Assembly (NCBI GenBank): GCA_003278855.1
Contig: QCCU01000001.1
Location: forward strand, 1-64,000
DNA from: Prochlorococcus sp. AG-347-M23
GTDB lineage: Bacteria; Cyanobacteriota; Cyanobacteriia; PCC-6307; Cyanobiaceae
Reading direction: 5' to 3'
DNA: 64,000 nucleotides
The notes under the pieces are model-generated. The model made no database searches. It was not told where the DNA came from and worked only from the letters and a program-made list of their open reading frames with translations. Shown here one piece after another: positions 20,514-23,148 of the stretch (its first letter is position 1; the number at the start of each line of letters is the position of its first letter). The position numbers were made by a program, and so were the translations under genes.

Positions 20514-20717
20514 ATGGCATACATAGAATGGGACTATACAGTAATAACAAGTATGGTAGAAAAACAAGGGTGGGATTTGCCTGATCGTGAATCGGAAGAG
20601 TGGAATAAATTTAACGATGAATTAGGAGAAAAAATGAGAGGTGTTGGACTTATTTTTGAAAAATATTGTAAATTTACTCCTGATGTTGGAGAAGGAGTTC
20701 ATCTTCTAGATGAATGA
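20514..20717 (+). CDS. Conserved small hypothetical protein
   Basis: 67 residues, not recognised. It is soluble, acidic and rich in Trp, Glu and Asp, with the segments IEWDYTVITSMVEKQGWDLP and RGVGLIFEKYCKFTPDVGEG. There is no signal or membrane segment and no metal-type cysteine pair. The gene has a good -10 box and a short leader. A hairpin follows at 20735, so it is probably a single-gene transcript. Confidence 0.7.
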   Translation: MAYIEWDYTVITSMVEKQGWDLPDRESEEWNKFNDELGEKMRGVGLIFEKYCKFTPDVGEGVHLLDE

Positions 20718-20894: not shown

Positions 20895-21287
20895 ATGAAA
20901 AATAAATTAACCTTTTTATTCGATGGTGGTTGTCCACTTTGTTTGAGAGAAACAAATTTTCTTAAAAAAAGAGATACCTTAAATCAAATTGCATTCATAG
21001 ATATTAATAGTAAGGAGTATGATCAAAGCCTTTTTAAGGACATCTCATATTCAGAAGCTATGTCAAACTTGCATGGGATTATTGAGAATGGTGAAATTAT
21101 TAGGGGACTAGATGTACTTGCATATTCTTATGAATTAGTTGGTTTAGGTTGGGTTTATTATCCCTTGAAGATTAAGCTCTTATCTCCATTATTGAGATTA
21201 GTTTACAGATATTGGGCAAAATATAGACTTCAAATTACAGGTAGATCTGATATTGAAAAACTTTGTACCTCACAATGTGAACAATAA
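20895..21287 (+). CDS. DCC-family thiol-disulfide oxidoreductase-like protein (DUF393)
   Basis: 130 residues from the ATG at 20895; an in-frame TTG at 20883 would add four residues (M-N-K-N) and is less likely. The N-terminal LTFLFDGGCPLCLRE contains the DxxCxxC motif that names the DCC family. The C-terminal half contains LDVLAYSYELVGLGWVYYPL and HHxx-like basic residues up to YRYWAKYRLQITGR. Proteins of this family have a thioredoxin-like fold; their targets are unknown. It is first in a tight run with the TIGR03643, DUF2256 and photolyase genes (gaps of 2 and 3 bases, then an overlap). Confidence 0.88.
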   Translation: MKNKLTFLFDGGCPLCLRETNFLKKRDTLNQIAFIDINSKEYDQSLFKDISYSEAMSNLHGIIENGEIIRGLDVLAYSYELVGLGWVYYPLKIKLLSPLLRLVYRYWAKYRLQITGRSDIEKLCTSQCEQ

Positions 21288-21289
21288 AT

Positions 21290-21526
21290 ATGGAAAGTAT
21301 CGACATAGACAGAATAATAGAAATGTGTTGGGAAGATAGAACACCCTTTGAAGCTATTGAGTATCAATTTGGTTTAAAAGAGGAAGATGCGATAAAAATT
21401 ATGCGTCAAAATCTTAAACCCAAATCTTTCAAAGTCTGGAGAAAGAGAGTTTCGGGAAGAAATACAAAACATATGGCCCTTAAAGATTCAACTAGATTTA
21501 AATCTACTCATAAAAGAAAATTATAA
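21290..21526 (+). CDS. TIGR03643 family protein, helix-turn-helix-like
   Basis: 78 residues. The body DIDRIIEMCWEDRTPFEAIE, then FGLKEEDAIKIMRQNLKP, looks like three short helices of a helix-turn-helix. A basic tail follows (WRKRVSGRNTKHMALK... to HKRKL). The family name TIGR03643 is a recognition from memory; members usually sit beside photolyase/cryptochrome genes, as this one does. The fold and charge suggest nucleic-acid binding, which is inference. The start is 2 bases after the DUF393 stop. Confidence 0.85.
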   Translation: MESIDIDRIIEMCWEDRTPFEAIEYQFGLKEEDAIKIMRQNLKPKSFKVWRKRVSGRNTKHMALKDSTRFKSTHKRKL

Positions 21527-21529
21527 ATT

Positions 21530-21661
21530 TTGAAAAATCTTTCTATTAAAACTTGTCCTGTTTGCAATAGGCCTTTTGAGTGGCGTAAAAAATGGAAAAA
21601 CTGTTGGGATGATGTTATCTACTGTTCAAAAAGATGCAGTAACAGGAAGTCGCAACGATGA
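21530..21661 (+). CDS. DUF2256 zinc-ribbon-like microprotein
   Basis: 43 residues starting with TTG at 21530, 3 bases after the preceding stop. Five cysteines (9, 12, 25, 32, 36) lie in TCPVC, NCWDD and YCSKRC, the pattern of the DUF2256 family, and would suit a small zinc site. The protein is very basic (many Lys/Arg, end RKSQR). Its stop overlaps the photolyase start by four bases (ATGA at 21658-21661), so the two are translationally coupled. The gene is easily missed because it is short and has a TTG start. Confidence 0.88.
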
Positions 21662-23148
21662 AACAAATATCAATTATTTTCCCGAATCAACTTTTTAGAG
21701 AAAGCCCAATATTAAAAATAAATTGTGAAGTTTTGATTTTGGAAGACTCATTATTTTTTGGAAATGATAAATTTCATAAATTAATTAACCATAAAAATAA
21801 GTTAGTTTTTCATAGAGCATCTATGCTCGCTTATAAAAATTATTTAGAAATATCTGGTTTTAAAGTTTTATATATCGAAAACAAAAATAATGTTTCTACA
21901 GTTGACTACTTGTCGGAATTTATTAAAAATAAATATCAGAAAATAAATCTAATTGACCCTCATGATTTTTTAATAATGAAGAGGATTAATAATTTTGTTG
22001 AAAGTAATAATTTAGCTTTAAATATTTTGCCTTCTCCTATGTTTATGAGTAGTGAAGATTTAAAAGATTTATTTGCATCAAATGCAAAAAAACCCCTCAT
22101 GGGGAGATTTTATGAGAATCAAAGAAAGAGCCAAAAGATATTAGTTAATCCTGATGATACACCTGAAGGTGGTAAATGGAGTTTCGATGAAATGAACAGA
22201 AAAAAATTACCAAAAAAAATTAATATACCCGATACACCTAAATTACAAAAAAATAAATTTGTAGTTAATGCAGAAAGGTCATTAGCCAATTTTGATATTG
22301 ATTTTATTGGAGAAAGTAATAACTTTTTATATCCAACTAATTTTCAAGAGGCAGATGAATGGTTAAATGATTTTTTTAAACATAGATTTTTCTTATTTGG
22401 AGATTATGAAGATGCTATTTCTAAAGAAAATTCTTTTTTATGGCACAGTTTACTTTCTCCTCTTTTAAATAGCGGCTTATTAACTCCAGATGTTGTAGTA
22501 AATAAAGCATTACTTTTTGCAAAAAATCATAATGTTCCTATTAACTCTTTAGAGGGTTTTATTCGTCAAATTATTGGATGGAGAGAATTTATTTGCCTCG
22601 TCTATAAAAAGTACGGAACAAAGATGCGAAATAGTAATTTTTGGAATTTTGAAGATAAGCCAATTCCAAAGTCTTTTTATCAAGGAAATACAGGAATTGA
22701 ACCAGTAGATGTTGTCATAAAAAATATTATTAAATTTGGGTATTGTCATCATATTGAGCGGCTAATGATTGTTGGTAACTTTATGCTTCTATGTAGAATT
22801 CACCCAAACCAAGTTTATAAATGGTTTATGGAAATGTTTATTGATTCCTATGATTGGGTTATGGTCCCAAATGTTTACGGAATGAGTCAGTTTAGTGATG
22901 GTGGTATCTTTTCAACAAAGCCATATATATCAAGCTCTAATTATGTAAAAAAAATGTCTAATTTTAAAAATGGCCCATGGTGTGAAATATGGGATGGCTT
23001 ATTTTGGAAATTTATTAAAGATAATGAAAGCTTTTTTAGAAAGCAATATCGTCTGGCAATGTTAACGAGAAATCTCGATAAAATGTCAGAGGAAAAATTA
23101 AATAATCACTTAAAAACAGCCGATAAATTTTTAAGAGATATTCAATAA
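21658..23148 (+). CDS. Photolyase/cryptochrome of the FeS-BCP group, Fe-S ligands lost
   Basis: 496 residues. The N-terminal SIIFPNQLF starts the antenna-type Rossmann domain. The C-terminal FAD domain has [13 protein letters not shown] (about 300), [17 protein letters not shown] (362-378) with the His-His pair H364/H365, and [18 protein letters not shown] (about 405-425). Prokaryotic (6-4) photolyases of this group hold a 4Fe-4S cluster on four cysteines. Here the TGMxC position is P349, and the block with CxxC and ACP is replaced by a shorter [13 protein letters not shown] with one Cys (C442). Repair of (6-4) photoproducts is inferred; a cryptochrome role is possible. Confidence 0.9.

What the first reader, a model, noticed from the sequence alone, without database searches (positions are those of the whole stretch)
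20895..23148. Four-gene photolyase cluster with Fe-S-less photolyase and three small companions
DUF393 (DCC thiol motif), TIGR03643 (HTH-like), DUF2256 (zinc-ribbon-like) and an FeS-BCP-type photolyase lie in one strand with gaps of 2 and 3 bases and a 4-base overlap, which implies joint expression. The companions carry redox, metal and nucleic-acid-like features, yet have no assigned role. The tight linkage suggests they mature, guard or recruit the photolyase. Seen: order, spacing, motifs. Known: association of such families with photolyase genes, as I recall it. Inferred: a functional system.
Basis: partly seen in the sequence, partly recalled or inferred. Interest (0 to 1): 0.72.

Follow-up and report, generated by a model that had tools for sequence, protein, structure and literature searches.

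The report
Photolyase with two conserved helper genes
In this Prochlorococcus genome a light-driven DNA-repair enzyme that lacks the cysteines for the usual iron-sulfur cluster is encoded with three small genes, two of which, in the bacterial genomes surveyed, were found only where a photolyase-family sequence is also present and so are likely its helpers, though what they do is untested.

Summary
In detail: four same-strand ORFs at 20895-23148, gaps 2 and 3 bases, overlap 4, all under purifying selection in Prochlorococcus. The photolyase is known (PromaPL/Phr2, Fe-S-less 'subgroup M' of prokaryotic (6-4) photolyases). The finding lies in its companions. In 279 Pseudomonadota genomes DUF2256 is in 69 of 84 with a PhrB-type photolyase, 10 of 88 with only other photolyases, 0 of 107 with none; TIGR03643 in 25, 1 and 0. 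Both cluster with PhrB in at least five arrangements, in Cyanobacteria, Bacteroidota, Pseudomonadota and on Acinetobacter plasmids. In one flavobacterial cluster the photolyase slot holds an Fe-S or an Fe-S-less enzyme beside the same companions, which argues strongly against Fe-S maturation. The E. coli control lacks both families, yet marine Synechococcus phr2 works in E. coli (published), so they are not strictly required for catalysis. Best reading: accessory proteins, likely acting on the DNA side (predicted HTH and treble-clef zinc finger). DUF393 is a local addition. Against exclusivity: TIGR03643 also sits in phage contigs without a detected photolyase, and 7 of 20 further TIGR03643 genomes lack PhrB. 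The held-library searches showed no paper on the association.

The parts
20895..21287 (+). DUF393 / DCC1-like thiol-disulfide oxidoreductase family protein (130 aa, CPLC motif)
   Evidence: PF04134 85.3 bits; present in all 24 window-like Prochlorococcus loci L093-L116, in two pieces in L100; no hit beside T-D-P in L027, L120 and L144
21290..21526 (+). TIGR03643 / DUF2805 protein (78 aa), predicted helix-turn-helix with a basic tail
   Evidence: TIGR03643 123.7 bits; AlphaFold2 pLDDT 79.8, helices 3-15, 20-27, 31-41, 44-55; dN/dS 0.059
21530..21661 (+). DUF2256 protein (43 aa, TTG start), four conserved Cys, predicted treble-clef-like zinc finger
   Evidence: PF10013 64.2 bits; AlphaFold2 pLDDT 85.1; start codon conserved in 24 of 24 loci
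21658..23148 (+). Fe-S-less PhrB-type photolyase (PromaPL / Phr2, prokaryotic (6-4) photolyase subgroup M)
   Evidence: PF04244 149.5 bits; PDB relatives include 4DJA/5KCM PhrB; none of the four cluster Cys; falls in the Fe-S-less clade

Best explanation
The window holds a four-gene cluster in which a photolyase without the PhrB iron-sulfur cysteines lies directly behind TIGR03643 and DUF2256, two small families that in 425 surveyed bacterial genomes were found only where a photolyase-family sequence is also present, and these two are likely accessory proteins that help the photolyase engage DNA in the cell. Shown: order and spacing, purifying selection, co-occurrence, clustering in different gene orders, indifference to the Fe-S cluster. 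Predicted from models: TIGR03643 is a helix-turn-helix protein with a basic tail, DUF2256 a treble-clef-like zinc finger of the YacG/TRASH type. Inferred: TIGR03643 would bind nucleic acid, DUF2256 would be the protein adaptor, and together they would raise the in-vivo efficiency of lesion search or access rather than build a cofactor. DUF393 is a lineage-specific neighbour that may keep thiols or flavin reduced.
For: Pseudomonadota, 279 genomes: DUF2256 in 69/84 PhrB genomes, 10/88 with other photolyases only, 0/107 with none; TIGR03643 25/84, 1/88, 0/107 (tallies 39, 55). Cyanobacteria, 146 genomes: DUF2256 in 39/42 PhrB genomes and 26/104 others. All 36 DUF2256-without-PhrB genomes of the two samples match PF03441, 35 over its cut-off. 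Linkage: 39 of 69 Pseudomonadota genomes with both have DUF2256 within 20 kb of PhrB, 26 of them within 1 kb of the PF04244 match. Arrangements: T-D-P (Prochlorococcus), T-P (G019, G024), T-P-D (G340, G403), P-T (G396, G414), P-D with convergent T (G384; Acinetobacter plasmids), D-cry-P-phr-T (Flavobacteria). Fe-S indifference: Fe-S-less enzymes in L151, L156, L159, L166, L169, L171 and Fe-S enzymes in L128, L131, L146, L158, L161, L167 at the same place between DUF2256 and TIGR03643. Not strictly required for catalysis: E. coli is among the 14 controls (it rings for PF03441) and rings for neither family, yet Synechococcus RS9916 phr2 gives light-dependent UV survival in E. coli (PMC9426592, passages). 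Folds: many HTH-type hits for TIGR03643, YacG and FCS-finger hits for DUF2256.
Confidence: 0.4

Rival explanations
1. TIGR03643 and DUF2256 are local regulators: TIGR03643 would bind promoters or RNA polymerase and DUF2256 would be its partner, setting photolyase expression by light or UV.
For: Fold hits of TIGR03643 include sigma region 4, LsrR, DeoR and Lrp HTH domains. Phage contigs carry it without a detected photolyase.
Against: TIGR03643 is nearly invariant across phyla (21 invariant columns in 40 rows), unlike what I would expect of regulators with changing operators. In many genomes both genes lie away from the photolyase. phr2 transcripts of WH7803 are reported not to rise after UV, unlike other phr genes (PMC9426592, passage).
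Confidence: 0.2
2. They serve the flavin or antenna chromophore: delivery, reduction or protection of FAD, lumazine or folate, with DUF393 as a thiol-redox helper.
For: FAD is the cofactor shared by the photolyases involved. GTP cyclohydrolase I follows TIGR03643 in L166 (Pfam). A Flavodoxin_2-type gene lies within 300 bp of TIGR03643 in 20 of 79 viral loci. DUF393 joins in the window-like Prochlorococcus loci.
Against: The E. coli control lacks both families, yet S. elongatus PhrB made in E. coli repaired (6-4) products (PMC9178010, passage) and RS9916 phr2 works in E. coli. The Flavodoxin_2 profile hits 0 of 148 bacterial TIGR03643 loci (flanks mostly of 1.5-6 kb, near-copies included). No enzyme fold was seen for either family.
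Confidence: 0.2
3. They are co-inherited light-stress genes in islands and have no direct link to the photolyase.
For: The flavobacterial cluster L166 also holds SDR, GTP cyclohydrolase I and further photolyases. TIGR03643 or DUF2256 stands alone on some plasmids and TIGR03643 in phage contigs.
Against: 0 of 107 genomes without any photolyase match have either gene. The genes are adjacent in Prochlorococcus but apart in Synechococcus-type genomes. Three-gene plasmid cassette. DUF2256 overlaps a photolyase gene in Salinivibrio.
Confidence: 0.15
4. They assemble or repair the [4Fe-4S] cluster of PhrB.
For: Cys-rich DUF2256 and the DUF393 thiol motif; 97 of 150 aligned PhrB-type rows carry the four Cys.
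Against: The window enzyme and its clade lack the four Cys, and members across it keep the companions; both enzyme types sit in the same flavobacterial slot.
Confidence: 0.02

Closest known systems
PromaPL / Phr2, Fe-S-less prokaryotic (6-4) photolyase (subgroup M)
   Same: Same enzyme: PF04244 + FAD domain, four cluster Cys lost, Prochlorococcus and marine Synechococcus (PMC9178010 and PMC9426592, passages)
   Different: Neither main text holds a DUF family name: 'duf' 0 times in PMC9178010, only the author Dufresne in PMC9426592. The RS9916 context that PMC9426592 gives for phr2 is uvrC upstream. The companions are not mentioned in what I read
FeS-BCP / PhrB of Agrobacterium, CryB of Rhodobacter
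   Same: Homologous, 228 and 201 bits over about 450 residues (4dja, 3zxs)
   Different: They carry [4Fe-4S]; the window enzyme lacks all four ligands
YacG (DNA gyrase inhibitor) and FCS zinc fingers
   Same: Small treble-clef-like finger; YacG is the best Foldseek hit of the DUF2256 model (prob 0.89, TM 0.61, E 0.29); DUF2256 is listed in the TRASH clan with FCS fingers (PMC4047054, passage)
   Different: No significant sequence match to solved structures (best E 0.044, ribosomal L24); genomic partner is a photolyase; gyrase binding untested
nudix hydrolase-photolyase operon of Prochlorococcus MED4 (Osburne 2010, seen only as cited in PMC9649867)
   Same: Another photolyase gene in an operon with a partner in Prochlorococcus
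   Different: Different partner family; no nudix gene among the four

Membership tests
Prokaryotic (6-4) photolyase, Fe-S-less subgroup M | PF04244 N-domain plus photolyase FAD domain | tested here: met
   149.5 and 32.6 bits
Prokaryotic (6-4) photolyase, Fe-S-less subgroup M | Groups with Fe-S-less members apart from the four-Cys members | tested here: met
   112-row quick tree: 29 Fe-S-less rows on one side of a branch, SH-aLRT 100, one change (the four Cys columns were not removed, some long branches flagged)
Prokaryotic (6-4) photolyase, Fe-S-less subgroup M | Repairs (6-4) photoproducts | not testable with these tools
   Literature disagrees: (6-4) in PMC9178010, suggested CPD in the PMC9426592 discussion
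FeS-BCP (Fe-S bacterial cryptochrome/photolyase) | Four Cys for [4Fe-4S] | tested here: not met
   Aligned columns read P, gap, gap, E in the window; 97 of 150 aligned rows have all four Cys and 53 have none
TIGR03643 / DUF2805 | Score over the curated cut-off | tested here: met
   123.7 against 66.55 bits
DUF2256 | Score over cut-off and CxxC...CxxxC | tested here: met
   64.2 against 25 bits; C9, C12, C32, C36 invariant in 22 rows
YacG-like gyrase-binding finger | Shared treble-clef fold | tested here: inconclusive
YacG-like gyrase-binding finger | Binds GyrB | not testable with these tools
   No complex prediction available
DCC1-like thiol-disulfide oxidoreductase (DUF393) | PF04134 over cut-off and CxxC | tested here: met
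   85.3 against 27.8 bits; CPLC in the sequence
Photolyase accessory module (proposed) | Physical or functional interaction with photolyase | not testable with these tools
   Needs bench work

The most novel reading that the evidence does not exclude
Prokaryotic photorepair is a three-part machine: photolyase, a HTH DNA-binding factor (TIGR03643) and a zinc-finger adaptor (DUF2256) that directs the enzyme to chromosomal DNA. The parts travel together on plasmids, reassemble repeatedly on chromosomes, tolerate exchange of the photolyase itself, and large marine phages carry the HTH factor alone to enlist their host's photolyase.
Probability: 0.12. Interest if true: 0.85.

Novelty: new variant of a known kind. 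Interest (0 to 1): 0.6.

Why it matters
In the passages I read, photolyases are treated as enzymes that work alone. Two families of unknown function, DUF2256 (named in PMC11796252 among domains frequent in proteins of up to 50 aa) and TIGR03643, would gain a role as photolyase partners. The presence of Fe-S and Fe-S-less enzymes in one and the same cluster type is a natural experiment that separates the companions from the unexplained Fe-S cluster. The genes are short and appear unlinked in Synechococcus-type genomes, so single deletions could test this directly in a strain with published phr2 phenotypes.

Tried and rejected
Fe-S maturation: rejected, see rivals. Natural fusions as interface evidence: P0003 is a 123-aa TIGR03643+DUF2256 read-through in Prochlorococcus-like DNA; the alignment with both domains was misaligned, so the two were folded apart and no interface was modelled. 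Long open frames around TIGR03643 (L189, L192, L211) were judged read-through, not fusions. DUF393 as a core member: rejected; outside the window-like Prochlorococcus loci and the window's own and close copies (L001, L025, L028, L092, L281) the profile grown from the window protein hits only L004 and L194 (near TIGR03643) and L267 (near PhrB); distant DCC1 relatives may be missed. No TIGR03643 match in the 50,697 INPHARED records. Promoter and terminator scan uninformative. DUF2256 in 37 viral-contig loci, with a photolyase ORF in only two (L393, L425), was not resolved into virus or host flank. Passages of PMC3204975, PMC12082625, PMC9498864 and PMC8612252 gave nothing on the companions. A family absent from the VIA-align lists is not excluded by that.

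Dropped rows and partial looks: the photolyase alignment kept ORFs over 330 bits and 440 aa, so split or truncated copies (L085, L100, L144, the G047 remnant) are not in the Fe-S counts; the 150 rows include near-copies and the window's own repeats, most of which the tree dropped. I fetched flanks for 20 of the 36 DUF2256-without-PhrB genomes, viewed 7 of 43 TIGR03643 plasmid records and 5 of 125 DUF2256 plasmid records, and ran PF03441 on 50 of 79 viral loci. In one search a PF03441 match means E <= 0.001; that of G320 is below the family cut-off. Bacteroidota had no genome-wide survey.

Full report
What is there. Four same-strand ORFs lie at 20895-23148: DUF393/DCC1-like, TIGR03643 (Pfam DUF2805), DUF2256 and a PhrB-type photolyase, with spacings of +2, +3 and -4 bases. 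All score over the curated Pfam cut-offs. In 23, 24, 24 and 23 Prochlorococcus copies, window included, pooled pairwise dN/dS is 0.162, 0.059, 0.159 and 0.153 in gene order, and the TTG start of DUF2256 is unchanged in 24 of 24, so the small ORFs are real genes and TIGR03643 is the most constrained. Two copies with broken photolyase ORFs were seen (L100, L144).

The enzyme. phmmer against the PDB gives prokaryotic (6-4) photolyases, PhrB and CryB at 201-231 bits. The four Cys columns that read CCCC in 97 of 150 aligned PhrB-type rows are all lost in the window and in 52 other rows, near-copies included. In a 112-row quick ML tree the 29 Fe-S-less rows form one side of a branch (SH-aLRT 100; Cys columns not removed). 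This is the known subgroup M that contains PromaPL (PMC9178010, passages), called Phr2 in PMC9426592 (passages). In Synechococcus RS9916 its disruption lowers UV-B survival about 1,000-fold, and RS9916 phr2 gives E. coli light-dependent survival (PMC9426592). Whether it repairs (6-4) products or CPDs is viewed differently in these two papers.

Co-occurrence. The same 279 Pseudomonadota genomes were searched for TIGR03643/DUF2805 (PF10985), DUF2256 (PF10013), PF04244 (PhrB type) and PF03441 (photolyase FAD domain); tallies are. DUF2256: 69 of 84 PhrB genomes, 10 of 88 with only another photolyase match, 0 of 107 with neither. TIGR03643: 25 of 84, 1 of 88, 0 of 107. In 146 genomes of the window's phylum (tally 39) TIGR03643 is in 27, DUF2256 in 65, PhrB in 42; 39 of 42 PhrB genomes have DUF2256; 16 of 27 TIGR03643 genomes have PhrB (one, G047, as a truncated remnant); all 27 have DUF2256. 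All 36 genomes with DUF2256 but no PhrB (26 and 10) match PF03441, 35 over cut-off; they include all 11 cyanobacteria with TIGR03643 but no PhrB. Within the window's family, four sampled genomes have all three genes and two have none. Outside these surveys, of 20 further TIGR03643 genomes, chosen mostly because no photolyase lay near the gene, 13 have PF04244 and 7 do not; other photolyases were not searched in those 7. Fisher p-values are but ignore shared ancestry, so I rely on the zero classes and on linkage.

Linkage. In Pseudomonadota 39 of 69 genomes with both have DUF2256 within 20 kb of PhrB, 26 within 1 kb of the PF04244 match: 9 just upstream and 16 just downstream on the same strand, 1 downstream on the other strand. 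TIGR03643 lies within 20 kb of PhrB in only 6 of 25. In named loci anchored on TIGR03643 (the best 80 of 574), 47 are outside Cyanobacteria, most from Bacteroidota: 23 have a PhrB, 30 any photolyase and 21 DUF2256 within up to 6 kb; 15 have none of these. Four further cyanobacterial loci (L130, L154, L162, L163) have none either. Gene orders differ: T-D-P in Prochlorococcus, T-P in G019 and G024, T-P-D in G340 and G403 and P-T in G396 and G414, P-D with convergent T in G384 and on three Acinetobacter plasmids, and D-cry-P-phr-T in Flavobacteria. The three genes are far apart in G136 of the window's family, and no partner lies near TIGR03643 in the Synechococcus loci L118, L121 and L140, whereas they are adjacent in the Prochlorococcus loci and in G134. 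The Prochlorococcus cluster was therefore likely assembled from scattered genes, with DUF393 added in the window's lineage.

A test of the maturation idea. In the flavobacterial layout DUF2256 - photolyase - PhrB - photolyase - TIGR03643 (in L166 a GTP cyclohydrolase I follows) the PhrB slot holds an Fe-S enzyme in L128, L131, L146, L158, L161 and L167 and an Fe-S-less one in L151, L156, L159, L166, L169 and L171 (L161 lacks the photolyase between PhrB and TIGR03643). Since the two enzyme types are separate clades, the enzyme was likely exchanged while the companions stayed. The companions are therefore unlikely to be Fe-S assembly factors. E. coli is among the control genomes and has neither family, which with the published E. 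coli results argues that they are not needed for basic catalysis.

Evidence that the link is not exclusive. TIGR03643 occurs in 79 IMG/VR loci, one with the trio (L375, same contig as L425), 78 without a photolyase ORF in the flanks. None of 50 such contigs has PF03441, although these may be fragments. One locus is plainly viral (major head protein near TIGR03643 in L314). A Flavodoxin_2-type gene lies within 300 bp in 20 of the 79 loci, many of them near-copies, and the same profile hits none of 148 bacterial loci. TIGR03643 stands without photolyase or DUF2256 in the flanks viewed on a Vibrio and a Spirosoma plasmid, beside DUF2256 but no photolyase on a Pseudoalteromonas plasmid, and DUF2256 without photolyase on Pantoea, Erwinia, Agrobacterium and Hirschia plasmids. 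In Salinivibrio DUF2256 overlaps the end of another photolyase gene, which suggests a link wider than PhrB.

Prior art. Full-text searches of the held library for DUF2256, TIGR03643, DUF2805, PF10985, PF10013 and DUF393 with photolyase listed 13 papers in all. I saw passages of five (PMC3597751, PMC6856373, PMC4047054, PMC11796252, PMC8612252) and only the listing of the rest, mostly Plasmodium and other eukaryote papers. None connects these families to photolyases as far as seen; subscription papers are not covered. PMC3597751 places DUF2805, by metagenome correlation, among translation-related domains.

Verdict. Real, conserved and functionally associated (I put that at about 0.85). The exact role is open; DNA-side help to the photolyase is my leading mechanism (0.4), ahead of regulation and flavin service (0.2 each).

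Noticed in passing
L314-L392 (IMG/VR contigs): TIGR03643 genes in large phage contigs (up to 380 kb) without a detected photolyase; in 20 of 79 loci a Flavodoxin_2-type gene lies within 300 bp.
   Followed up: partly
L430, L433, L434 (Acinetobacter plasmids): A compact TIGR03643 / DUF2256 / PhrB cassette beside nudC on plasmids typed as mobilizable. PMC6856373 lists a rare DUF2805 + NudC-type nudix domain architecture, so a nudix link may be worth a look.
   Followed up: partly
L166:1064-7025, L128:1017-7005 (Flavobacteriaceae): Light-stress island: DUF2256, three photolyase-family genes, an unassigned 142-144 aa protein, TIGR03643, then GTP cyclohydrolase I and SDR (Pfam-tested in L166 only), with a fourth photolyase further on.
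   Followed up: partly
L441:3383-5144 (Salinivibrio): DUF2256 gene overlaps by 11 bases the end of a gene annotated deoxyribodipyrimidine photo-lyase.
   Followed up: no
L017 (G047), 1308-1529: A truncated PhrB reading frame (48 of 224 Pfam positions) next to an intact TIGR03643 gene, as if the photolyase was lost first.
   Followed up: no
P0003: Natural TIGR03643-DUF2256 fusion (123 aa, 13 member sequences) in an otherwise Prochlorococcus-like sequence.
   Followed up: no
L096: A contig filed under a Rhodobacteraceae MAG carries the Prochlorococcus cluster at 100% TIGR03643 identity; likely a binning error.
   Followed up: no
L305, L306, L311: In three cyanobacterial flanks DUF2256 sits beside a gene that looks by eye like an isoaspartyl peptidase/asparaginase instead of a photolyase.
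   Followed up: no
window 20514-20717: 67-aa ORF upstream of the cluster, no Pfam or NCBIfam match; a similar ORF lies upstream in L028.
   Followed up: no
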